Positions 20,770 to 32,960 of a stretch of DNA of 32,960 bases are shown here, piece by piece. The DNA is from Planctomycetota bacterium. GTDB taxonomy: Bacteria > Planctomycetota > Planctomycetia > Pirellulales > Pirellulaceae. The notes beneath the pieces are model-generated. The model searched no databases. It was not told where the DNA came from and saw only the letters and a list, made by a program, of their open reading frames with translations. How positions within the stretch are numbered: the first letter of the stretch is position 1; each line of letters opens with the position of its first letter. The stretch is taken from contig JAPLNL010000004.1 in the NCBI GenBank assembly GCA_026692905.1, positions 1-32,960 on the forward strand, read 5' to 3'. Position numbers and translations under genes: made by a program.

Positions 20770-22134
20770 CTACTTTGCTATCAAAGCCACCTTCTGCCCT
20801 TCTTTGAAGGCATTTGCATTCGCTGAAATAACGTCCTCGGTACCGTCTAAGCCACTAACCACCTCGAGATCCGTTGCGGTGACAATACCAGTTTGAATTG
20901 CACGGCGAGCAATAGTGCCGTCAGCCGTAACGATCAAACTAGTCGGCTTACCATCCTGTTGAACGATTGCAGAACGCGGTAGCGATAGAACATCGGACTT
21001 CTGCGAAACAATAAGTTCGACGTTCGCATACATACCAGGTCGAAGGAGCCCCTCTGTATTTTCAACTTCAATCTCACACTCCAGCGTCCGCGTACTGGTG
21101 CTGAGTACCCAGCTTGTCCTTGCAACTTTTCCTTCGAAAATCCGATTGTTCAACGCAGGGACTTTGATGGCTGCCTTACCTTCTTGCTTGACTAGGACCG
21201 CCTCTGATTCGGGCACATTTAAACTCACACGAACCCTGTCCGTTTGAACGATAGTGAACAACGGATTTTCATTGTTTGCTTGCGACACCTGCATCAACGA
21301 TCCTGGATCAAAATTCCTGACCGAGATGGTGCCGGAATAGGGAGCACGAATTTGCATGTATTCGCACAAGGATTTGATTCGCTGATATTCGGCTTGAGCA
21401 ATTTTCCGTTTCGCTTCGATCGATCGCAGATCAGCCTTCGCTTTTGAGATCGCTACCTTCGCTTCGTTTTGTTTTGCTTTTGCCGATTGAATTCGAGCAA
21501 CCACTTCCTCGCGTGCAGCGTCGGCAGCTTTCATCTGTTGCGTGGTTTCTTCGGCAAGCTTGGCGGTAACGGTCTTCGTCGATGCCAATACACTGATTCG
21601 ATCGGCTTCGGATTTCCAGCGTTGGTACTCCGCCTCCACTTTGCGTTGTCCGGCAACCGATTCTGCGACATTCGCATCTGCGGACTGCGCCAATGCTTCA
21701 GTAACTTCGATTGCAGCTCTCGCTTGGTCAATGTCTGCCTCCGCTTGCGCGATCATCGCTTCTTTTTGAGCCAACTCATCGGATAGTTCGGGTGCAACGA
21801 GTACTGCGAGCAGTTGTCCAGGCTCAATTGCGTTTCCTTGGTCATCTTTCTTGGGACCAGTAACGCGGTCTCCAATATCAACCAAGATTTGATCGATGAA
21901 ACCGTTTACCTTCGCATGAATTCGAGTCATCGAAAATGCTTCGATCTTGGCCGGTTGCTCCGTCTTTTGCGTAAGCGACATCTTCTTGGGTTTAACAGTG
22001 GCAACCTTGGGCAGTTCTGCTGCTGTCGATTGAGAGGAGGCGTTCTCGGTATCAACCGGTTTGGAACAACCCAGAGTTAGCAACATCAGCCCAATACACA
22101 TGGACCAAATGCTTTTAGATACAGTAGTTTTCAT
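20770..22134 (-). CDS. RND efflux periplasmic adaptor (membrane fusion protein)
   Basis: A 454-residue HlyD/AcrA-type adaptor. The N-terminus is a lipoprotein signal with lipobox LLTLGC (C23). A biotinyl-lipoyl strand pair (IHAKVNGFIDQILVDIGDRV and IRAPYSGTISVRNFDPGSLM) brackets a long alpha-helical hairpin, roughly residues 110-270, rich in A, E, Q and K. The hairpin is longer than in AcrA. The beta-barrel and membrane-proximal domains follow (VRVSLNVPESEAVLVKQEGK, SLPRSAIVQQDGK). It links the inner-membrane permease to the TolC-like channel. Its start lies two bases after the permease stop, so the two are translationally linked. Substrate range is unknown. Confidence 0.93.
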   Translation of the reverse strand: MKTTVSKSIWSMCIGLMLLTLGCSKPVDTENASSQSTAAELPKVATVKPKKMSLTQKTEQPAKIEAFSMTRIHAKVNGFIDQILVDIGDRVTGPKKDDQGNAIEPGQLLAVLVAPELSDELAQKEAMIAQAEADIDQARAAIEVTEALAQSADANVAESVAGQRKVEAEYQRWKSEADRISVLASTKTVTAKLAEETTQQMKAADAAREEVVARIQSAKAKQNEAKVAISKAKADLRSIEAKRKIAQAEYQRIKSLCEYMQIRAPYSGTISVRNFDPGSLMQVSQANNENPLFTIVQTDRVRVSLNVPESEAVLVKQEGKAAIKVPALNNRIFEGKVARTSWVLSTSTRTLECEIEVENTEGLLRPGMYANVELIVSQKSDVLSLPRSAIVQQDGKPTSLIVTADGTIARRAIQTGIVTATDLEVVSGLDGTEDVISANANAFKEGQKVALIAK

Positions 22135-22136
22135 GA

Positions 22137-25100
22137 TTAATTTTCGATGGACGGTTTGATTGATTCGTCAATGAATACGGCGCTTTCCCGATCGAGCGGA
22201 TGAAGCGAGACTGATTTGGTCGAACTATTTGATTGTACCCAGGCGAAAACGGCGGGCAGTACAAAGAGCGTTGAGAATGTTGCTGCAAGCAGACTACCTA
22301 TCACCGCAAGTCCAAGTGGTGCTGTTTGTTGCCCTGATTCTCCAAAGCCAATTGCCATGGGGAGCATCCCTGCTAACATCGCGCAGCTTGTCATCAGAAC
22401 GGGTCGCAATCGGTCAGTTGCTCCATGACGAGCGGCTGCTAAAGCACTCTCGCCTGATTTACGTCTTTGTTCGGCAAAGGTCACAACAAGGATTGCGTTT
22501 GCCATCGCGACCCCGAGCCCCATGATGGTTCCAATAAATGACTGAATGTTCAGTGTGGTTCCTGTGAGCCATAGCATACAAGCCGCGCCAGCCACGACAG
22601 CGGGCGCAGTCGAAACGGCCACTGCGGAAAGTCGGAAGGATTGGAAATTTGCAGCCAATAGCAAGAATATTGCAAGAATCGCGAGCAGTAGTCCAACCCC
22701 CAGACCGCTCAGCATTTGCTTAAGTGGAGGAATCTGCCCTCGTATCTCATAGCTTATCCGTCCTGGTTTCTCACCTGCTTTTACTAAAACATCCTTGGCC
22801 GTGTCGTCGTCCTTCTTTACACGATCGAGTATCTTGCTGATCTCGCCAGAAATGCTGCCGAGATCGGTGCCGTCTAGGTTTGCCGTCAGCGACAACTCAC
22901 GCTTCATGTTGTAACGATCGAATTCCCCTGGCATGGTTGACTGAGTGATTTGAGCAACATCTCGAAGAAGCAGTGGTGAAGCTTCGCGGTGGAGAACAGG
23001 AACGGTGCCCAAATCGGAAAGAGATTTCATCGCGACTTGAGGAATCTCGACTTGCACCTGATATCCAATTCCCGATTTGGGATCGGGCCAATAATTGGGC
23101 ACTACAAATCGACTCGATGAAGTAGCAGCAAGAACAGAGCGGCCGACCTGATCCATGGTTGCACCGGCAATGCCCGATTTTTCCCGATCGATTCGCACGT
23201 CGACAGTTGGGTAATCCAATGACTGTACAATTTGAACGTCCTTAAGTCGCTTATTCGACTTTAGCGCTTCTTGGGCTTTCTTTGCAAAGTCTTTGTTTTC
23301 AACAAGTGAACCGCCACGCACGGCAACCTCAACCGGCGTCGAAGATCCAAAACTCATCACATCACTAATGATGTCGGACGGTTCGAACGAAAATCGAGCG
23401 TTGGGGAATTGCGTTGCGAACTTGATTCTCAGGTCACTCTTCAACTTTTCCGTGTTAACTCCGGAATGAGGCTTGAATGCAATTCGCAGGATCGCTTCTT
23501 CGGGGCCCCTCGTGAATTGATAAACAGCATTGATTGGAAAGGATGCAGGCACGGTGCCAACGTACCCGAGTGATAGATCAACTTTGTTTGGACCGACGTT
23601 CTCTTTGACGGACTCGAGTACGGCAATTGCAAGTTTTTCTGTGACATCAATATGGGTTCCATCTTGCGCTCGAAGCCGTATGCGGAACTCACCTGCGTCT
23701 ACATTTGGAAAGATATCGACACCAACGCGGGACACTGTCATCCAAACAAGCAAACCACATGCGGTTAGGTATACAGGAACAACGATCCATCGCAAACTAA
23801 TAACTGCGTTTATGAAGCTATCAAACCGCTCCACAAGGAAAAACGGCGAAACCTCCGCATGCTTTCCAGCGTGATTGTCTCGCAACAGCCAAATGCAAAG
23901 AATCGGAACCAGCGTACTGGAAAGAATGTACGATCCAATCATGGCGAATCCCACTGCTAGCGACAGCGGATAGAAGAGTTCACGCGGTGCACCTTGCATA
24001 AAAAATGTCGGTACAAACACCGCTAGGATACAAAGCATTGCCAATAGACGTGGTATGGCCGTTTGATGGTTGCCATTCCAAACCGCCAATGCGATCGACT
24101 TAGATTTTCTCATCTGAGTATGGATGTTCTCTATTTCCACAGTCGCTTCGTCAACTAATATCCCAACTGCGAGCGCCAAACCTCCGAGAGTCATCAAGTT
24201 GATGGTTTGCCCCGTCAGCCAAAGACAAACGATCGAAAAGAGGATTGCGAGAGGAATGTTCAGAACGACGACAAGGGCACTTCGCCAGTCTCTTAGAAAA
24301 AGAAGAACCATCAAGCCGGTGAGAAAGGCACCAAGCATTCCTTCGGTGGTTAGGCTTGCAATGGCTCGCGTGACATAGGGGGATTGATCAAATTCGAATG
24401 CAACTTGAATATCATCAGGCAACTCTTTCTGCATGGTGGGCAAGGCCTGCTTAATCTCGTTGATAACATTCATGGTGGAGGCATCAGCACGCTTCGTTGC
24501 GAGGATATAAACAGCTCGGCGGCCATTGACCAAAGCGTATCCCGTCGTCATATCGGCTGAATCTTCAATACTTCCGATATCTCGAAGGTAGACGGTGTTT
24601 TCGCCTGTCTTAAGCGGTATCTGCCCTAAGTCACGAATATCCTTGACCATGGCATTCGATGGAACTGCAGGATAGAAATCACCTAACCGGACGTTTCCAG
24701 ATGGGTTGATGGTATTCCCCTTAGTAAGGGCTCCAATCACATCGTCCGGCGAAAGTCCAAATGCTCGAAGTCGATCTGGATTAGCGCGGATTACAATACT
24801 CCGCGCAGAACCTCCGAAAGGTGGCGGAGCAGAAACTCCGGGCAGCGACGAGAACATGGGCCGCACTTTAAATAGGGCTTGATCTTGTATCTCAGCGATC
24901 GTCTTCGTGCCACTGGACAGAACGAGATAACCGACCGGTACGCTACCGGTATCAAATCGCATAACGAACGGAGGCACTGTTCCCGGAGGCATCATGGCTC
25001 GAGAACGATTCACATAGTTGATTGTTTCAGCCATCGCTTGGGCCATATTGGTACCCGGATGGAAGATCAATTTCATCAAGGCGGTCCCCTGCACGTTTCG

Positions 25101-25400
25101 GCTCTCGACGTGATGGATGCCATTGATGTAGAGGAAGTGATACTCGTAATAGTTTGTGAGAAGGCCTTCCATCTGCGCGGGGTCCATCCCTCCGTATGGC
25201 TGGCAAACATAAATGACGGGGAGATTCAAAGACGGGAAGATATCGATTGCCATTCTTTTGATCGGCAGTTCGATTCCACGCGTTTTCAGCCAATCATCAA
25301 CTCCCTTTGGACGAGTAACGCTCAAGCCAACTAGCACCAGCGAAATCAGTGCAACAATGACAGTTTTTGGACGTTTTAAAGCAAATCCAATAGGATTCAT
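22137..25400 (-). CDS. RND efflux transporter permease (AcrB/HAE1-like)
   Basis: A 1087-residue inner-membrane antiporter of the RND superfamily: 12 predicted membrane helices with two large periplasmic loops (about residues 35-345 and 570-880). Conserved marks are DIFPSLNLPVIYV, the TM4 motif AVGILVDEATVEIENIH (D417-E418 at the place of AcrB D407-D408), and SGLGVGLLLAILAIFLLLAAN and GTIMGLGVAMANAILVVTFA in the C-terminal half. At the position of AcrB K940 the sequence reads MANAIL without the lysine, so the proton-relay triad is incomplete compared with AcrB; related RND branches share this. It is the first gene of the minus-strand exporter operon. Its N-terminal region has an insertion (GVDDWLKTRGIELPIKR) between TM1 and the first strand. 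Confidence 0.94.
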   Translation of the reverse strand: MNPIGFALKRPKTVIVALISLVLVGLSVTRPKGVDDWLKTRGIELPIKRMAIDIFPSLNLPVIYVCQPYGGMDPAQMEGLLTNYYEYHFLYINGIHHVESRNVQGTALMKLIFHPGTNMAQAMAETINYVNRSRAMMPPGTVPPFVMRFDTGSVPVGYLVLSSGTKTIAEIQDQALFKVRPMFSSLPGVSAPPPFGGSARSIVIRANPDRLRAFGLSPDDVIGALTKGNTINPSGNVRLGDFYPAVPSNAMVKDIRDLGQIPLKTGENTVYLRDIGSIEDSADMTTGYALVNGRRAVYILATKRADASTMNVINEIKQALPTMQKELPDDIQVAFEFDQSPYVTRAIASLTTEGMLGAFLTGLMVLLFLRDWRSALVVVLNIPLAILFSIVCLWLTGQTINLMTLGGLALAVGILVDEATVEIENIHTQMRKSKSIALAVWNGNHQTAIPRLLAMLCILAVFVPTFFMQGAPRELFYPLSLAVGFAMIGSYILSSTLVPILCIWLLRDNHAGKHAEVSPFFLVERFDSFINAVISLRWIVVPVYLTACGLLVWMTVSRVGVDIFPNVDAGEFRIRLRAQDGTHIDVTEKLAIAVLESVKENVGPNKVDLSLGYVGTVPASFPINAVYQFTRGPEEAILRIAFKPHSGVNTEKLKSDLRIKFATQFPNARFSFEPSDIISDVMSFGSSTPVEVAVRGGSLVENKDFAKKAQEALKSNKRLKDVQIVQSLDYPTVDVRIDREKSGIAGATMDQVGRSVLAATSSSRFVVPNYWPDPKSGIGYQVQVEIPQVAMKSLSDLGTVPVLHREASPLLLRDVAQITQSTMPGEFDRYNMKRELSLTANLDGTDLGSISGEISKILDRVKKDDDTAKDVLVKAGEKPGRISYEIRGQIPPLKQMLSGLGVGLLLAILAIFLLLAANFQSFRLSAVAVSTAPAVVAGAACMLWLTGTTLNIQSFIGTIMGLGVAMANAILVVTFAEQRRKSGESALAAARHGATDRLRPVLMTSCAMLAGMLPMAIGFGESGQQTAPLGLAVIGSLLAATFSTLFVLPAVFAWVQSNSSTKSVSLHPLDRESAVFIDESIKPSIEN

Positions 25401-26096: not shown

Positions 26097-28580
26097 CTAT
26101 TTCAAAGCTCGAACAAGTCGAATCTGGATCGGCTGCGGGAATTGCAATGTCATGTCGAGCGTGTTGTCATTGACCAGCTTATAGCGAATCGTGAGCTCCC
26201 CCTGAGTTCCGTTGCCGTCTGTGTAGCCGAGATTCAGGACTGCGTTGCCGTCTTTGTTGAATTTCCACGCGCCGAGATGCGAAGAGCCTGTGCTGTCAAC
26301 CCCGACCTGGAATATATCCCCTTTCTGTGCGTTAACACTGATCAACGACACCGACGTACGCCCAGCGTCGACGGATTCCGATTCAATGACACGGTCTTTG
26401 ATTTTCCACCTTACTGTCATCTTTAGCCCATCGCCCTTCGTACCTTCATCGATCCATGTCCCGACTAATCGCTCCCAATCAGAACGCTTCAGTGCTTCGG
26501 AGAGTGTCTTTGGTTTAGACTTGTCTCCGTCGTCGCTTTCTTTCAATTTGGCATCGGCGACCGTCAGAATAAAATCGTTGCTGAATTGGCCATTGGGATT
26601 CTGCAACTGCATTAAGTGCATGCCATTGTCGGGACGTTGTTCGAGTTTGATGGCGATGTGTTCGTTGTCCTTTAGTACAACATGCCCTGCCACGCGATGA
26701 CCATCAACAAAGATGCGAGCTTGCCCGTCAACGTGCCGGCCGCTAACCAACATTTCGGTCTGTTCAGGATAAAGCACGGGAAATTTCTGAGATCCGCGTT
26801 GCTCCTCGATCGGACCAAGGGTCCAGATGCTCGGCTGAGGATGTTCGACGTCACAGTTTTCACCGTGTTGTCCCGTCAGCGTGACGATCAGCTTGCCTGC
26901 AGCGACTTCCTTCAAAAGCGATTCATGGGATAACGACAAATCCCCCGCCTTGTTGTGATATCGAGCATCAGGACTAAACTGCAGGTGTACCGGGGCGGAT
27001 GCGTCAGCGACACCGTTGCCTTCTAATACTATAGCTCCTTCCGTCGCAGCAGATTCCAGTACCGCTAGTAAGTCGAGCGTCACCTTGTCAGCAACATTAT
27101 CTTTGCTGAGCGTCACTTGTCGAGCATACGCGCCCGAATAGCCGGTGCTCATTTCGAGGACCATGTCCCACACTGGGTTGAATCGTTCCCGTCCACCCCA
27201 CGCGAGCTTCCAGATCTCTTCTTCCGATTGGCCACGTTCTGCAACCTGGCGATAGAACGGAAATTCGACCATGTTGAGCCGTCCTTGAGGCAATATCAAG
27301 AATCGGTCATAGGCACCGCGCCATGTGGGAGCATCCATACCAGTGCCAGGTGTATTGGTACTGACAAGATGCGGCATGCGATGACAATCGCCACAGACGT
27401 TGGGCTTAATCTTGGAGGGGTCATTGTCGCCATCGATGTGGAACAACTGAAAACCCTCGCGGGCTCGCTGAGTCACTTCGCTGGTGTAGGGGCGACGTTG
27501 AGCTGGTGGGAAAGGGACAGTCAACAGATACGTTGCCATGTCGTCTCGCTCTGCGGCAGAAAGTCGCCCAACTTTCTTTTCGTCGTTGGTCGCTGTTTCG
27601 TCCGAGAAAGCCATCGTAGATGCCAGTCCGCCATCGATCAGATGTCGTATGCTGCTGATGGGATCACCATTTACCGAGTTTGGTTCAACGCTGGTGTAGA
27701 CGTGGGCGCTATTGTTGCCTCCATATGGGTCTCCAGGAATTCCGTCCCAATGATACGGCTCGGTGTCGCGCAGTCCCCGAACTGGCATTGTCGAACGCGG
27801 CATGATCTGATTGCCTCCGGTCACGAGGGGAGTTTTCAATACCCATAGCAATTGATCGGTGTGACTATCGGGATGACAGCTCGCGCAAGAAAACGTTCCT
27901 GTGGACGAAGCCGCTGCCGTCTCGAACGCCACGCGACCTCGCTTGACCGCAGGATGAGTCGGATCATTCAACGTTATGGTGGCCGTAACGCGGGGTATCG
28001 TGCGATCACTGAGGTCCACCAGACTGACAGTATTAGCCACTGCGTTAAGCACCCATGCTGCATTCAGCTTGCCATCGGACTGATGTTGTAAGGCAATGCC
28101 ACGAGGAATCGAATCGACATCAATTCGTCCCAGAACATCACCACTCTTCGCGTCTACGGTGAACAGTTTGTCGGAAGCGGCGGCCGAAACCACCAGGGTA
28201 GAATCGTCTTGACTGACTTCGATAGCAAACGGCGTGGCCAATGCCTGCCCAGGATCAGGCTGCTGAGGCGGCAGTTTTTCCAGTTCGATGAATTCCGAAA
28301 CTGCGGCGTTCTTGTCGGGTCCAAATGGAACGCGTGTGATACGATTCAAAAATGCACGATTTTGCAGTTGGCTAAGATCATGCTTGGTTGTTCCTGCTCG
28401 ACCATTCACATCATTGCGAGCATCCGTTTGCGCAACAAACACGGTTCCCTGTGAATCTACAGTCAATCCGTAGAGTAGCGTTCCCAATGTATCGACCGTC
28501 TGTAGTAGCTCATCCGTCTTGGTATCGAAGACAAAAAGGTCACGAAGACAGTGAATGTCGCCGTCCATTGAGAAGAACAC
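26097..28580 (-). pseudogene. Diheme beta-propeller c-type cytochrome protein, N-terminally truncated
   Basis: An 827-residue frame. Residues 13-200 are beta-propeller blades (RDLFVFDTKTDELLQTVDTL, TPFAIEVSQDDSTLVVSAAA). Two c-type heme sites follow, CASCH (232-236) and CGDCH (396-400), in a cytochrome/di-heme-peroxidase-like region with SSIRHLIDGG and WDGIPGDPYGG. A C-terminal lipocalin-like beta domain covers about 690-827 (LVGTWIDEGTKGDG). Such proteins are exported before heme is attached. Here there is no signal peptide; the first dozen residues (MFFSMDGDIHCL) do not look native, and the frame begins inside the 3' end of the upstream acyltransferase gene. The 5' end with signal peptide and first blade(s) seems deleted. 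If translated, it would stay in the cytoplasm, where c-type maturation does not occur. The rest of the frame is intact, suggesting a recent event. Confidence 0.7.
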
Positions 28581-30138
28581 CCAACCATGTGTTTCTGACG
28601 AAGAATTGATAGCTTAGCAACAGCACGCTAGTAGTAGCGACGAAGATGATGATAACCTTGACGCCGGACGGCAATGGAAGATCACGCACGAGATACTGGG
28701 CGTAAATAATCAGTGGGATGTGGACTAGGTACTGCCAGTATGATGAATCTGAAAGATATCGCACCCAAGATCTTTGTTCGTGGAAGTGGCGGTGAAAGAG
28801 CCCTATCATTCCGAAGGACATGTACCATGCGAAACTGACTTGAAATAGGGCGGCTGCAATCTTAGCACCTGTCGCACTCGACCCTTGAAGAGTCAGCCCT
28901 AGTGGAAACAGCACAAGCAAGGCAACCGCCAGCATCCACCAAAAGCCGTGCCCAACCGCAGCGTCGCGATCCTTTACGTCGAAGTACAAGAGTCCGAATC
29001 CAAAGAAGATGGCGTAATATGCCAGCACGGCAGGCATTGGCAATAATCCAATCGACGTATCCGGCCCGAAGGCACCGGGCATTCGACCCATAAGGAACTG
29101 AGGCACAGCGGTCAAAGGAATCAGCCACAGGAAACGGCGCGTCGATAGCAGCCAGGATGTTGGCACTGCTGGAATTGGCATTACCTGCGTCAACTTTATC
29201 AGAACCGCGAAAATGCAGACATACCAGCATAGGAACCAAAGAAACCACAAATGGCCAAACAGCGGAAAGTACATCAAAAGGTTGACAATCGAACTGAGAC
29301 GGAAAGGATCTTCCGAGTCGATCGGCAGTGATGCTATTTTGCGACCAGTACGTTCGCTGATCAAAGTTGCGATCACTTCTCGGCCCTTGAGAACATCGAT
29401 TCGTTCGGCCGGTACCTTGAAAAGATTTGCAATAAATGCCGTCGTTCCCCAATCGATCAAAAGCAATTCATCTGGCCGTTTGCCTTCGTTGTTTAAGGCC
29501 GCCAAGCTGGCATCGGACTTCAACAATAATTCAGCGATGTTCGCCCGTCCAAAGAAGCAAGCAACGTGTAGAGGTGTTGCTCCATTCGGGTCTTTTAACT
29601 GAACATCGCCCCCGTGATAAAGGTATTTCTCGACCGCTGCCTGATCTGCCGTGGCGACATCACCCCAAATCTTGATTTCGGAAGCAGGAGTCGGAATGGC
29701 ATTTTCCGCCTCGCCACGATCCGCCGTAACCGTTGCAGTTGCTGTAGTTGCTTGAGAACGCACGTAGCCAGACACAACCCATGTCAATGGAATGATCGTC
29801 AACAAACCAAGCAGCATGGGAATGAAGATTCGTTTGAAGCGGTGCGAAAGCAATTCACGAAGTCCCCGTTTCCGCCACAGCATCGCCGTAAAGAATCCGC
29901 TGACCAAAAAGAACAGCTGCATTCGCCAGCCATGAATAAAAGAGAGCAGCACGCCGTACCATGGACTAGCGTGAGAATCTTCTACCGCCCAGATGACACC
30001 AATGCCCGGAATCAACGACATAATGCCGTGCAGAATTATTCCAAGTAGCATCGCGAAAGCGCGCAACGCATCGAGATCATGTCGGCGTGATGATGCCGAA
30101 GTTGATGCAGGGATCAAATCAGTCACTGTGTTCGTCAT
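28540..30138 (-). CDS. Acyltransferase-3 (OpgC/OafA-like) with inserted ankyrin block
   Basis: A 532-residue inner-membrane acyltransferase. The family start is RHDLDALRAFAMLLGIILHG (19-38), with conserved R26 and the catalytic-type H37; QLFFLVSGFF (74-83) and about ten membrane helices follow. Such enzymes move acetyl or succinyl groups across the membrane onto glycans. Between helix 3 (ending near 125) and the next helices (from 285) lies an extra soluble domain, residues 157-260: KIWGDVATADQAAVEKYL, ankyrin repeats with NGATPLHVACFFGRANIAEL, and a cap ending in RIDVLKGREVIATLIS. The same unit occurs twice in the upstream putative anti-sigma protein. The gene begins 11 bases after that gene's stop. 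Its last codons (GVLLNGRRHSLSS) run into the truncated cytochrome gene, which supplies the stop codon. Confidence 0.88.
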   Translation of the reverse strand: MTNTVTDLIPASTSASSRRHDLDALRAFAMLLGIILHGIMSLIPGIGVIWAVEDSHASPWYGVLLSFIHGWRMQLFFLVSGFFTAMLWRKRGLRELLSHRFKRIFIPMLLGLLTIIPLTWVVSGYVRSQATTATATVTADRGEAENAIPTPASEIKIWGDVATADQAAVEKYLYHGGDVQLKDPNGATPLHVACFFGRANIAELLLKSDASLAALNNEGKRPDELLLIDWGTTAFIANLFKVPAERIDVLKGREVIATLISERTGRKIASLPIDSEDPFRLSSIVNLLMYFPLFGHLWFLWFLCWYVCIFAVLIKLTQVMPIPAVPTSWLLSTRRFLWLIPLTAVPQFLMGRMPGAFGPDTSIGLLPMPAVLAYYAIFFGFGLLYFDVKDRDAAVGHGFWWMLAVALLVLFPLGLTLQGSSATGAKIAAALFQVSFAWYMSFGMIGLFHRHFHEQRSWVRYLSDSSYWQYLVHIPLIIYAQYLVRDLPLPSGVKVIIIFVATTSVLLLSYQFFVRNTWLGVLLNGRRHSLSS

Positions 30139-30149
30139 TTCGACTCCAG

Positions 30150-31439
30150 CTATACCGCGTATCTTAGCAAAATCTCAGCAATCTGCTCCCGTGCGAGATT
30201 GATGGTATCGAGGTCGCATTTCAGTCCAAGAGAACCGTACACATGTTGATAGATGGCTCTCAGTTCCGCGTTCATTTCGACCGACGTTGCAGCCAGAGGA
30301 GTCAAACCATGATTGTTGACCTTGTTCGAATCCGCTCCCGACTTCAGAAGCAGCTCAACGATTTCCTGCCGGCAGAAGAAGCTTGCCAAGTGGAGTGCGG
30401 AATCACCGGAGTGGTTTTGCGAATCAAGATGGGCATCTGCGTGAATCAGGATCTGGGCCGTATCAAGTTGTCCGAAAATCGCTGCTAGCATCAGCGATGT
30501 ACTTCCACCGAAGTCCTCTCTTATGTTCAGATCAGTACCCATCTTGATGTGTTGTTCGATGACCGAGGTGTTACCGGTTATTGCTGCCTGCCAGATGCTT
30601 ACATTTGGAACACTGTTAGATGCCTTTGGAGCAGCGTCCGTCAGCAAAGCCATGATCTTAGGCCGCTCAAGCCGAATCCGAGCAAGATCCAGCCGCTGAC
30701 CCAATTCCTTCTCAACATTTCGGTAAAACGATTCCAGGCCGTTACTCCACGTGAGGGCAACTAGATCCATTGCATTGAATCCACGATGGTTCCGCATCGC
30801 AGGATCGGCACCCGCGGCCAACAGTAAACGAACAATGTCCGTGTGCCCAAGGAACGCGGCCATCTGAAGCGGCATATTTCCTTCTGCATCGCCAAGTGAT
30901 ACATTCGCTCCTTCAGAAAGCAACAATTCGACCGTGGCGTGCTGTTGAAACAACGTTGCTATGTGAAGCGGTGTCAGACCATTTTCACAGCGTGCATCCA
31001 CCGACAAATGGTTTCGCAGTTCCTCTCTAATGCCATTACGATCACCACGACCAGCCGCCGCCCAGATGTTCTTTTCTGACAACGGGCCACTGAATGTGAC
31101 GTGACCCAATGTCGGATAGGCCATCGCGATTTTATGAGCAGGGAAATTCAGCACGAGCACACAAAGCAGAATCGTGACCGCCAGCGTTGAGAGCCCCGAA
31201 GCCCACTTCCAGACTACCGTTGACGAAGAAGTCGACAAATGCCGAAGAGCCAATTCAGGCTCTTCACGCTGCAGCACAGTCAACTGCACTTCCTGACGCA
31301 GATGCGAGTCGAACTCCGCCTGGAGCAGTATCTCATCCTGAAGTTGCTCGTCACTAGCGAGACGAGTTTCCAATTCCCGCACTTCTTCTTCCGTAGCAAG
31401 TCCCAGCAGGTACCGCTGAATTAATTCGCTCGAAGTCAT
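30150..31439 (-). CDS. Membrane-anchored ankyrin-repeat putative anti-sigma factor
   Basis: A 429-residue protein from ATG 31439, two bases after the sigma factor stop; a start at 31475 would overlap the sigma gene. Residues 1-60 (SSELIQRYLLGLATEEEVRE and on) resemble the helical sigma-binding N-terminus of planctomycete FecR-like anti-sigma factors, without zinc ligands. One membrane helix lies at about 78-99. The exported part has two units, 125-268 and 282-428, each starting with an IW-x-A-A helix, then ankyrin repeats (NGLTPLHIATLFQQHATVEL; GDSALHLASFFCRQEIVELL), then a cap (FYRNVEKELGQRLDLARIRL; IYQHVYGSLGLKCDLDTINL). It presumably holds the sigma factor at the membrane until the ankyrin part meets its signal. 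That role rests on gene position and topology. Confidence 0.75.
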   Translation of the reverse strand: MTSSELIQRYLLGLATEEEVRELETRLASDEQLQDEILLQAEFDSHLRQEVQLTVLQREEPELALRHLSTSSSTVVWKWASGLSTLAVTILLCVLVLNFPAHKIAMAYPTLGHVTFSGPLSEKNIWAAAGRGDRNGIREELRNHLSVDARCENGLTPLHIATLFQQHATVELLLSEGANVSLGDAEGNMPLQMAAFLGHTDIVRLLLAAGADPAMRNHRGFNAMDLVALTWSNGLESFYRNVEKELGQRLDLARIRLERPKIMALLTDAAPKASNSVPNVSIWQAAITGNTSVIEQHIKMGTDLNIREDFGGSTSLMLAAIFGQLDTAQILIHADAHLDSQNHSGDSALHLASFFCRQEIVELLLKSGADSNKVNNHGLTPLAATSVEMNAELRAIYQHVYGSLGLKCDLDTINLAREQIAEILLRYAV

Positions 31440-31441
31440 GC

Positions 31442-31981
31442 TTACTGTACCTCGACAATTCTGAGACGAATGCACTCCGTCAGTTGCTCACGAAGCCGAG
31501 CCAACAACTTATACAGTGTGTTGGGTGTCTTCCTTCGACGTTCGGCAAGATACACAACGGAAGTGGTAGCGCCATGAGGAGCCAATAGAAGTTCGCGATG
31601 CTCCGCCGAAAACTGGCCCAAACATAAATTCAGCGCCTTGCCGCGAGCCGTGGCGTCCTCCAGCGATCGGTTCTCGAATCGTTCCGCCAACGTTGTCAGC
31701 ATCTCATCACTCAACAGTGGCTGTCGTGAACGCAGCTTCTCGACTTGACGTAAACACTTGAACCGCAGAATTACTCTGGCCCACGGCATGAATCCATCTG
31801 CAGCCGCCAGTTGACTTCGCTTCTGCCACATTGTCACGCTGGCTTCCTGCAAAGCTTCGTCCACCAGATCCCAGTCAGGAACCAAGCTCCGCGCGTAACC
31901 ACGCAACGCCGGTTCACACTTGACTAGCAACGCCACGAAGTCGTCTTCGTTGAGTTCAAATTGTCGGCTTACATCGTTCAT
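31442..31981 (-). CDS. ECF sigma factor, Rhodopirellula/Verrucomicrobium type
   Basis: A 179-residue sigma-70 family factor with only regions 2 and 4. Region 2 (about 14-80) includes DFVALLVKCEPALRGYARSL and VDEALQEASVTMWQK, the core-binding and -10-recognition helices. Region 4 (about 115-175) includes LCLGQFSAEHRELL and VVYLAERRRKTPNTLYKLLA, the helix-turn-helix for the -35 element. ATG 31981 was taken; GTG 31987 is possible. It belongs to the planctomycete/verrucomicrobial group I know as Rhodopirellula/Verrucomicrobium sigma-70. It is the promoter-proximal gene of the ankyrin run, so it may control this operon itself. No mutation in the key helices is seen. Confidence 0.92.
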   Translation of the reverse strand: MNDVSRQFELNEDDFVALLVKCEPALRGYARSLVPDWDLVDEALQEASVTMWQKRSQLAAADGFMPWARVILRFKCLRQVEKLRSRQPLLSDEMLTTLAERFENRSLEDATARGKALNLCLGQFSAEHRELLLAPHGATTSVVYLAERRRKTPNTLYKLLARLREQLTECIRLRIVEVQ

Positions 31982-32305
31982 ACGCACTTATATCCGGCTT
32001 CAAATGGAATCCTGCCACGATTTTTTAGAAATTGTTTGATCGACGGTTTGCGACCACTCCGTTCGTAATTGGAAGAGCATCGCCGCCACGGTGAATAGCA
32101 ACGAATCGTGGATCTCGATTGCCTGAGTATCGTTTCAATTGGTAGCCTCATTTTGTTGCATAACGCACTTGCCAAGGGTTACTTTAGATTTTGTCGGGAT
32201 TTGTGTACGTCTCCCGCGTCGAAAAACCAACTCTCTACTCAAAACTGGCAGTAAAGACTGGATTTTCAGGTAGCAAAATGCTACCATTGGATGAAGGAGT
32301 ACAAA
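31982..32305. promoter_or_regulatory. Divergent promoter region of ECF operon and toxin-antitoxin pair
   Basis: About 320 bases between the sigma factor start and the antitoxin start, transcribed in opposite directions. No gene is recognised. Promoters for both units should lie here. The only clear structure is the palindrome at 32269-32285, close to the antitoxin. Confidence 0.45.
32269..32285. promoter_or_regulatory. Putative antitoxin operator palindrome GGTAGC-AAAAT-GCTACC
   Basis: A perfect 6-bp inverted repeat around five A/T bases, ending 20 bases before the antitoxin start codon and just ahead of its ribosome binding site. Type II antitoxins usually bind such a palindrome at their own promoter, so this is the likely autoregulatory site; the role is inferred. 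Confidence 0.55.
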
Positions 32306-32677
32306 ATGGGTCAGCCAGTCAAACTTTCGGACGAATTAGTCGACGACGCGCGAGCAGTGGTGCCGTTTTCCCAGCGGAGTATCGCCGGCCAGATCGAATT
32401 CTGGGCAGGTCTCGGAAAATCGATCGAGCCGCTGCTTCGTGGTGATCGGGCCCTTTCGTTGCAGATGGCCGGGGGAGAACGTCGGCTATCGCAACTCTTA
32501 TTGGAGGTCGAAACTGCCAAAGGTCGAAAACGGCTGGAATCCACTCTGACCAAGCGGCCCTATCCGCACTACAAACCGGTGCCTGACCATCCAGACCTGA
32601 TATGCCGCATCGAGGAAGACGGGAGAGAAACAGTTGGTCGATTTGTTGGTCGTGAGTTCCATGAGGCTCACCGTTGA
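32306..32677 (+). CDS. ParD-like antitoxin
   Basis: A 123-residue protein from ATG 32306, preceded by AAGGAG at 32294-32299; an in-frame ATG at 32291 lies before this ribosome binding site and is less likely. The N-terminal VKLSDELVDDARAVVPFSQR and SIAGQIEFWAGLGKSIEPLL segments are the ribbon-helix-helix region of the ParD-like antitoxin family. The C-terminal half (ESTLTKRPYPHYKPVPDHPD onward) is the probable toxin-neutralising part. Its TGA stop overlaps the TTG start of the following toxin (TTGA), the usual coupling in toxin-antitoxin operons. It probably represses its own promoter through the palindrome just upstream. Confidence 0.85.
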   Translation: MGQPVKLSDELVDDARAVVPFSQRSIAGQIEFWAGLGKSIEPLLRGDRALSLQMAGGERRLSQLLLEVETAKGRKRLESTLTKRPYPHYKPVPDHPDLICRIEEDGRETVGRFVGREFHEAHR

Positions 32678-32960
32678 GTCTGCCATTTGAGTTTCTCGAC
32701 ACGCGTCCGATCGTCCTTGCACTGGCTGGTTCGAATGGCGCTGGTAAGTCGACTTTCTATGAAACCTTTCTCGCAGACTCTGGACTTCGATTTATCAACG
32801 CTGATGTATTGTCGGCATCATTGAATGTGAGCGCTTACGAAGCAGCTGAGTTAGCCTCGTCGTTGCGGGCGGCACTCGTCGCACAACGTGAGAGCTTTAT
32901 TTTCGAGACTGTACTATCAGATCCTGTCGGTGAGAAAGTCGAACAGCTCTCAACGTACGC
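32674..32960 (+). CDS. Zeta-like toxin / AAA-type kinase, partial (3' end outside window)
   Basis: The first 95 residues of a P-loop kinase, cut by the window edge. It starts at TTG 32674, overlapping the antitoxin stop by three bases. After LPFEFLDTRPIVLALA comes the Walker A motif GSNGAGKST (19-27), then FINADVLSASL (40-50) and FIFETVLSDPVGEKV (75-89). These are the landmarks of the zeta-toxin family: P-loop, N-A-D, and F-E-T-x-L-S. Zeta toxins phosphorylate UDP-N-acetylamino sugars and so block cell-wall synthesis; single-gene relatives may have other targets. Pairing with a ParD-like antitoxin rather than epsilon is known in Gram-negative bacteria. The lid and substrate domain are not visible here. 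Confidence 0.85.
   Translation, partial: MSLPFEFLDTRPIVLALAGSNGAGKSTFYETFLADSGLRFINADVLSASLNVSAYEAAELASSLRAALVAQRESFIFETVLSDPVGEKVEQLSTY

What the first reader, a model, noticed from the sequence alone, without database searches (positions are those of the whole stretch)
28540..31981. ECF sigma factor, ankyrin putative anti-sigma and ankyrin-bearing acyltransferase as one signalling/effector unit
Three adjacent minus-strand genes with gaps of 2 and 11 bases join a sigma factor, a one-helix membrane protein with extracytoplasmic ankyrins, and a multi-helix glycan acyltransferase carrying the same ankyrin unit in a loop. Ankyrins outside the cytoplasm in bacteria, and inside an acyltransferase-3 enzyme, are unusual. 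A testable idea is that both proteins recognise the same ligand or each other, so that acylation state or a shared partner sets sigma release. I know of no described system of this composition.
Basis: partly seen in the sequence, partly recalled or inferred. Interest (0 to 1): 0.85.

Follow-up and report, generated by a model that had tools for sequence, protein, structure and literature searches.

The report
Sigma-factor operon with swapped-in ankyrin sensor
A planctomycete gene switch (a sigma factor and its membrane-bound partner) seems to have exchanged its usual outside sensor domain for ankyrin repeats, and it heads a short operon with an acyltransferase that carries the same ankyrin unit; what the ankyrins sense is unknown.

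Summary
The three genes are present as described: a TIGR02989 ECF sigma, a one-helix membrane protein with two ankyrin blocks, and an OpgC-like acyltransferase with an ankyrin insert between membrane helices 3 and 4.

Relatives show the core to be a FecR-type sigma/regulator pair with ankyrins in place of FecR: in one sigma clade (support 100/98) 14 of 17 loci have the ankyrin partner and 3 a FecR partner; 7 of 7 outgroup partners tested have FecR. A promoter-like motif, GGCAGG-N15/16-GGATA, precedes 28 of 28 sigma genes examined, suggesting self-activation.

Ankyrins outside the cytoplasm are supported: 4 of 120 listed relatives carry haem-binding motifs beyond the ankyrins.

A fixed triad is not supported. 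An acyltransferase follows in 3 of 15 ankyrin-partner loci. One other genus has a four-gene operon, whose fourth gene, a propeller protein with two haem motifs, is cut short here. Sigma binding, promoter function and the ankyrin ligand are untested.

The parts
32011..32016 (-). -35-like element GGCAGG
   Evidence: With the -10-like element, at least 9 of 11 matches before 28 of 28 sigma genes examined; this site is one of 6 exact matches in the genome, control 4
31991..31995 (-). -10-like element GGATA, 15 bases after the -35-like element and 9 bases before the ATG (near-leaderless transcript inferred)
31442..31981 (-). ECF sigma factor, TIGR02989 family, 179 aa
   Evidence: 133.2 bits, cut-off 124.55
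30150..31439 (-). Membrane protein with ankyrins, putative anti-sigma (or FecR-like) regulator, 429 aa (an alternative GTG start at 31475 gives 441 aa)
31266..31433 (-). N-terminal three-helix domain (residues 3-58), matching the N-termini of FecR-type partners
31149..31217 (-). Single membrane helix (residues 75-97; low model confidence here)
30633..31067 (-). First ankyrin block with cap helices (residues 125-269)
30156..30596 (-). Second ankyrin block with cap helices (residues 282-428)
28540..30138 (-). OpgC-like acyltransferase (Acyl_transf_3), 532 aa, ten membrane helices by my reading of the model
29347..29682 (-). Ankyrin insert between membrane helices 3 and 4 (residues 153-264), predicted outside
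26097..28580 (-). Fourth gene: propeller protein with two CxxCH motifs; the part matching residues 1-266 of the G351 relative, with its signal region, is missing here

Best explanation
This is a local, self-activated ECF sigma operon. The TIGR02989 sigma is held by a single-pass membrane partner related to FecR-type regulators, in which the outside FecR domain has been exchanged for two three-repeat ankyrin blocks. When the ankyrins bind, or lose, a partner outside the cytoplasm, the sigma is freed (or activated), binds GGCAGG-N15/16-GGATA just before its own start codon, and raises the whole operon: sigma, partner, acyltransferase and, in the form seen in another genus, an exported propeller protein with two haem motifs. 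The acyltransferase and the haem protein are envelope effectors. Shown by sequence: the architecture, the two kinds of partner within one sigma clade, the conserved motif, and a four-gene operon in one other genus. Inferred: sigma binding by the N-terminal domain, promoter function, release on a signal, control of the downstream genes. Unknown: the ligand of the ankyrins and the substrate of the acyltransferase.
For: Sigma clade of 17 with support 100/98: 14 ankyrin partners, 3 FecR partners. N-terminal part matched (E up to 0.01, 30-63% identity) in 16 of 20 fetched loci of sigma relatives without ankyrins; 10 of 10 non-ankyrin partners given to Pfam carry FecR above cut-off. Motif before 28 of 28 sigma genes with at least 9 of 11 matches, 14 of them 11 of 11, against 98 of 3000 random stretches at 9 or more, same spacers. 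The strict form occurs only at the sigma genes in G351 (2 of 2 hits), G009 (1 of 1) and G414 (1 of 1). Four-gene operon with overlapping frames in G351. Outside location: 4 of 120 listed relatives carry CxxCH motifs after the ankyrins; mean K+R in the 15 residues on each side of the helix 2.2 (N side) and 0.8 (C side) over 39 rows. Ankyrin part of the window against the two remnants dN/dS 0.53-0.58; ankyrin parts of two intact pairs 0.14 and 0.24; neighbouring acyltransferase 0.21-0.22.
Against: No binding or expression data. In this genome the strict motif has no match (GGCAGGAT instead of GGCAGGTT; control 2), and the looser one gives 6 hits against 4 for the reversed control; in G476 two of three strict hits lie elsewhere. 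An acyltransferase follows in 3 of 15 loci only. The fourth gene is cut short here, so the operon may be decaying in this lineage. Four of the 20 loci gave no match to the N-terminal part. The two remnants compared with each other give 0.36, so the raised dN/dS may lie on the window's side. The charge bias of the window's own helix is slight (2 against 1 K+R in 18 residues).
Confidence: 0.66

Rival explanations
1. The membrane protein is needed for sigma activity, like E. coli FecR, rather than a plain inhibitor; the ankyrins receive a signal and the N-terminus then activates the sigma. (This overlaps with the best explanation, which leaves the sign of control open.)
For: The partner's relatives are FecR-domain proteins, and a paper passage says that the 59 N-terminal residues of FecR are essential for ECF activity (PMC7406223, passages read).
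Against: No FecA-type transducer gene was searched for. Sequence alone does not separate the two modes.
Confidence: 0.25
2. One reading: a dedicated triad in which the two ankyrin proteins share a ligand or bind each other, and acylation state sets sigma release.
For: Same ankyrin-plus-cap unit in both; same order in a second genus; a third locus, G009, has an acyltransferase of the same broad family in that place.
Against: In 12 of 15 ankyrin-partner loci the next gene does not match the acyltransferase by BLAST at E up to 1e-3. Of the acyltransferase places in 92 family genomes, two lie beside an ankyrin partner and two beside its remnant. The G009 acyltransferase has no Pfam ankyrin match.
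Confidence: 0.1
3. The ankyrin unit is a general binding or scaffold domain of planctomycete envelope proteins with no signalling meaning; its presence in sigma partner, acyltransferase and haem proteins reflects domain shuffling alone.
For: The unit also sits at the C-terminus of propeller proteins with two CxxCH motifs in stretches with no match to the window's sigma (L161, L162, L165, L166).
Against: The ankyrin part of two intact pairs is kept by selection (dN/dS 0.14 and 0.24), and invariant or nearly invariant positions run through both blocks in 39 rows (mean column identity of the whole alignment 57%).
Confidence: 0.12
4. Chance neighbours or an assembly artefact.
For: The window is one whole contig of a 148-contig genome, and the junction after the acyltransferase stop joins a truncated gene.
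Against: Same gene order in G351 and the sigma-ankyrin pair in 14 loci.
Confidence: 0.03

Closest known systems
FecR-type ECF sigma regulators of planctomycetes (Pfam PF04773 partner next to a TIGR02989 sigma)
   Same: Same sigma clade, related N-terminal part, one membrane helix, same promoter-like motif; neighbours with CxxCH motifs in most fetched stretches
   Different: Outside domain is ankyrin, not FecR
R. baltica ECF sigma RB10049 with PSD1/PSC2 protein RB10051 (PMC2754498, passages read)
   Same: An ECF sigma proposed to regulate a planctomycete-specific cytochrome-type protein; some ankyrin-partner loci here have PSD/PSCyt neighbours
   Different: The word ankyrin does not occur in the main text; transcript data there, sequence only here
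OpgC/MdoC glucan succinyltransferase (NF003014)
   Same: Best NCBIfam match of the acyltransferase, 143.8 bits
   Different: Below the 338-bit cut-off; carries an ankyrin insert; substrate unknown
Periplasmic ankyrin protein AnkB (P. aeruginosa) and the C. jejuni hemin-trafficking protein (cited in PMC7567364, passages read)
   Same: Ankyrin proteins tied to haem enzymes, AnkB named as periplasmic
   Different: Linked to catalase; a sigma link is not mentioned in the passages; no sequence comparison was made here

Membership tests
TIGR02989 ECF sigma factor | Score above the curated cut-off over the full model | tested here: met
   133.2 bits against 124.55, residues 14-171, model 2-158 of 158
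TIGR02989 ECF sigma factor | Pfam region 2 above cut-off | tested here: met
   34.7 against 24
TIGR02989 ECF sigma factor | Separate Pfam region 4 match | tested here: not met
   Not listed at E up to 1, although the TIGR02989 match spans that part
FecR-type sigma regulator | N-terminal part homologous to those of FecR partners | tested here: met
   BLAST matches of 30-63% identity in 16 of 20 fetched loci, none in 4
FecR-type sigma regulator | One membrane helix after the N-terminal domain | tested here: met
FecR-type sigma regulator | Outside FecR domain (PF04773) | tested here: not met
   Ankyrin families and a weak Arginase match only
FecR-type sigma regulator | Binds and controls its sigma | not testable with these tools
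   Needs an experiment
Acyl_transf_3 (PF01757) | Score above cut-off | tested here: met
   126.4 against 31
Acyl_transf_3 (PF01757) | Histidine in the first membrane helix kept | tested here: met
   H37 invariant in 56 of 56 aligned rows; that this His is the catalytic one is recalled
OpgC/MdoC equivalog (NF003014) | Score above the equivalog cut-off | tested here: not met
   143.8 against 338
AnkB-type haem-linked periplasmic ankyrin proteins | Sequence kinship beyond the ankyrin fold | not tested
   No AnkB sequence was compared

The most novel reading that the evidence does not exclude
The ankyrin-plus-cap unit is a common docking piece for exported haem proteins. The sigma partner senses the presence or state of a propeller protein with two haems (or haem itself) outside the cytoplasm through its ankyrins, and the acyltransferase and some of the haem proteins carry the same unit to join one envelope complex, so that the sigma reports on the assembly of a surface redox machine.
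Probability: 0.14. Interest if true: 0.82.

Novelty: new variant of a known kind. Interest (0 to 1): 0.6.

Why it matters
It shows the sensor of an ECF sigma system apparently exchanged as a unit, FecR for ankyrin, inside one sigma clade, with the promoter-like motif kept. Ankyrins are best known as binding domains inside cells (recalled), so a membrane sensor with ankyrins outside is unusual. Because the same unit sits in an acyltransferase and in haem-motif proteins, its ligand can be sought directly with binding tests. The motif gives a handle on the targets of a sigma group that is numerous in planctomycetes (up to 16 matches in one of 60 relatives).

Tried and rejected
Wide regulon by motif search: in this genome the looser pattern gave 6 hits, one at the sigma. 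Of the other five, three lie inside longer frames (L262, L263, L264), one lies just inside the start of a 469-residue frame, 15 bases before a TTG (L265), and one has no frame of 90 residues within 120 bases downstream (L266). A wide regulon was not claimed.

Sigma-ankyrin fusion proteins: none of the 104 relatives printed (P0121-P0224) matched the sigma by BLAST at E up to 1; four long ones (620-747 residues) are fusions to a part with CxxCH motifs instead.

An acyltransferase relative in the PDB by fold: none with E up to 0.001; no title among the 50 listed names an acyltransferase, and most name DARPins or designed ankyrin proteins. The fold search of the ankyrin protein listed ankyrin-type structures in its first 50 rows.

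Six further relatives have a CxxCH string at residue 349-351, inside the ankyrin repeats. I do not count these as haem sites.

MzaA and Dot/Icm effector models match the ankyrins far below their cut-offs; set aside as ankyrin-only similarity.

The G009 acyltransferase fusion as topology evidence: weak. It needs eleven helices for its haem part to be outside with the N-terminus inside; the hydropathy scan counts eleven at a threshold of 1.0 but ten at 1.2, 1.4 and 1.6.

No control was made for how often genes with CxxCH lie near any planctomycete gene, so no enrichment is claimed.

Literature: searches (listings read). Searches gave no paper; the two and the one are on other subjects by title. 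PMC7406223 and PMC8103513 (passages read) do not contain the word ankyrin in the main text. An ECF classification paper (DOI recalled) and two planctomycete genome papers are not held, so absence from print is not shown. The motif was not searched for in papers.

Full report
Observation. The sigma passes the TIGR02989 cut-off (133.2 against 124.55 bits). The second protein matches ankyrin families in Pfam, apart from a weak Arginase match, and has one membrane helix. The third passes Acyl_transf_3 (126.4 against 31) with an ankyrin match inside.

Structure. The AlphaFold2 model of the second protein (39 sequences, mean pLDDT 82.3, pTM 0.57) has three N-terminal helices (3-58), a membrane helix (75-97) and two ankyrin blocks, each followed by two longer helices; residues 59-86 and 93-107 are of low confidence. 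The acyltransferase model (56 sequences, mean pLDDT 83.9, pTM 0.74) has ten membrane helices by my reading, with the ankyrin part between helices 3 and 4. With the N-terminus inside, the inner loops hold 17 K+R and the four short outer loops 2; the loop with the insert holds 16 in 166 residues. This favours an outside insert.

Topology from fusions. Of 120 listed relatives of the ankyrin protein (907 found among 7,997 scored candidates), 92 match the N-terminal part at E up to 1e-5 and 91 of these have a predicted helix at residues 65-130. Four (P0153, P0160, P0172, P0181) continue past the ankyrins into a part with one or two CxxCH motifs. C-type haem is attached outside the cytoplasm (established knowledge). 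At the usual threshold no helix is predicted between; at a lax threshold three of the four show one inside the repeats, which I take for ankyrin helices. So the ankyrins lie outside. The G009 acyltransferase is followed by PSCyt1 (19.0 bits, below its cut-off of 22) and PSD3 domains with a CxxCH, but its helix count depends on the threshold, so I give it little weight.

The sigma clade. A search of 241 family genomes with an alignment of 11 sigma proteins gave 17 hits of 286 bits or more, then a gap to 237. Fourteen of the 17 lie next to an ankyrin partner. Three (G476, G157, G435) lie next to a protein with a matching N-terminal part and a FecR domain. A tree of 34 sigma proteins gives the 17 a support of 100/98; the ankyrin label needs three changes on it, but well-supported branches alone force only one. 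The other 17 rows were labelled FecR by default; partners of seven of them were given to Pfam, besides the three above, and all ten carry FecR above cut-off, two also Laminin_G_3. Reading: ankyrins replaced FecR at the base of the clade, with FecR regained inside it, or a single switch with badly placed FecR rows; the tree does not decide.

Range. Fifteen ankyrin partners with the N-terminal part were found in 241 family genomes. G456 has one ankyrin block instead of two. In 294 genomes drawn from the phylum no full-length partner besides the window's own passed E 1e-40; in 396 drawn from the order those with the N-terminal part lay in the same family. The partner is not confined to that family, though: two listed relatives, P0160 and P0167, are named Fuerstiella by their source, a genus that NCBI places in Planctomycetaceae.

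Promoter-like motif. Before 28 of 28 sigma genes examined (of the 34 on the tree; six were not examined) there is GGCAGG, 15 or 16 bases, then GGATA, ending 1-10 bases before the start codon I assigned, with at least 9 of 11 matches, 14 of them 11 of 11. Of 3000 random stretches of fetched loci, 98 reach 9 and one reaches 11 (spacers 14-16, for which the observed set scores the same). The sigma genes are related, so these are not independent cases. So short a distance would give a near-leaderless messenger (inference). The strict pattern GGCAGGTT-N13/14-GGATA was sought in five genomes: G351 two hits, G009 one and G414 one, all at the sigma genes; G476 three, one at the sigma; G000 none; the reversed control gave three in all. 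The looser pattern in G000 gave six hits against four for the control. This fits a small local regulon but does not prove one.

Neighbours. G351 holds the full set in one run: sigma (73%), ankyrin partner (58-59%), acyltransferase with an ankyrin match (55%) and a 1092-residue protein, 74% to the window's fourth gene, with a Lactonase-type propeller match (26.0 against 21.7) and two CxxCH motifs; its CCP_MauG match is just below cut-off (23.1 against 25.6), as is the window's (21.3). An acyltransferase is third gene in 3 of 15 loci (window, G351, G009); the G009 one has no Pfam ankyrin match. A relative of the fourth gene at E up to 1e-100 lies within 5 kb in 5 of 15 (window, G351 twice, G414, G443). 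A gene with a CxxCH motif lies in the fetched stretch in 14 of 15, the exception being G367; no control was made. Those given to Pfam include PSD/PSCyt proteins and DUF7133-cytochrome proteins. In R. baltica an ECF sigma was proposed to regulate a PSD1/PSC2 protein (PMC2754498, passages read).

The acyltransferase family. 2,621 relatives at E up to 1e-10 among 7,995 scored candidates; of the 120 listed, 107 carry an ankyrin family in their precomputed Pfam column and 13 do not (my count). Matches at E up to 1e-45 occur in 92 of 241 family genomes. All 56 aligned rows have 139 or more residues between positions 128 and 288 of the window's protein. Comparing places, two lie beside an ankyrin partner and two beside its remnant. 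Some stand beside planctomycete cytochrome genes: in G507 a PSD4/PSCyt3 protein and a DUF1552 protein follow, and in G145 a fourth-gene relative follows.

Natural loss. In G015 and G017 (93% DNA identity) homology stops at 31128-31129: the sigma and the N-terminal part of the ankyrin gene are absent there and an unrelated gene precedes. In G024 the acyltransferase and only about the last 55 bases of the ankyrin gene remain in the aligned stretch (28538-30203). The window's ankyrin part against the two remnants has dN/dS 0.53-0.58, the remnants against each other 0.36, the acyltransferase 0.17-0.22, and ankyrin parts of two intact pairs elsewhere 0.14 and 0.24. The acyltransferase seems not to need the sigma. 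That the ankyrin gene loses constraint without it is suggested, on few pairs, and the branch cannot be told.

The fourth gene here. The 26097-28580 frame lines up with residues 267-1090 of the G351 protein. Against G015 the window lacks about 0.94 kb between the acyltransferase stop and the fourth gene (28542/28545). By eye the frame has no signal region, so its product is probably not exported (inference). An assembly error is not excluded.

Verdict. A FecR-type sigma system with an exchanged sensor, in what looks like a small self-activated operon: a new variant of a known kind. Ankyrin ligand, direction of control and acyl substrate remain open.

Noticed in passing
window 26097-28580 (-): Fourth gene lacks its 5' part compared with G351 and G015; the two aligned pieces overlap by four bases at the junction 28542-28545.
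   Followed up: partly
L096 6122-7537 (G015): The same fourth gene is damaged differently in a close relative: 1.64 kb corresponding to window 26208-27847 is missing there.
   Followed up: no
L154, L161, L162, L165, L166, L192, L193, L284: Propeller proteins with two CxxCH motifs carry the ankyrin unit at the C-terminus; in L161, L162, L165, L166 and L284 no match to the window's sigma lies in the fetched stretch.
   Followed up: partly
L114 2-1978 (G009): Acyltransferase fused to PSD3 and a weak PSCyt1 match, cut by the contig edge.
   Followed up: partly
P0071, P0082, P0083, P0091, P0092, P0111: Acyltransferases whose insert is about twice as long (285-336 residues) as in most others.
   Followed up: no
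window 32291-32958 (+): ParD-like protein (38.7 bits against 23) followed by a frame with a P-loop-like start that runs off the contig; by eye a toxin-antitoxin pair of the zeta kind, not searched.
   Followed up: no
window 20770-25400 (-): RND-type efflux pump gene (ACR_tran 565.9 bits) with a 454-residue frame just downstream on the same strand.
   Followed up: no
P0169, P0208: Ankyrin partners with a more divergent N-terminal part (33-34% identity to the window's) but a conserved membrane-helix region, as if the sigma-facing part had drifted or been exchanged.
   Followed up: no
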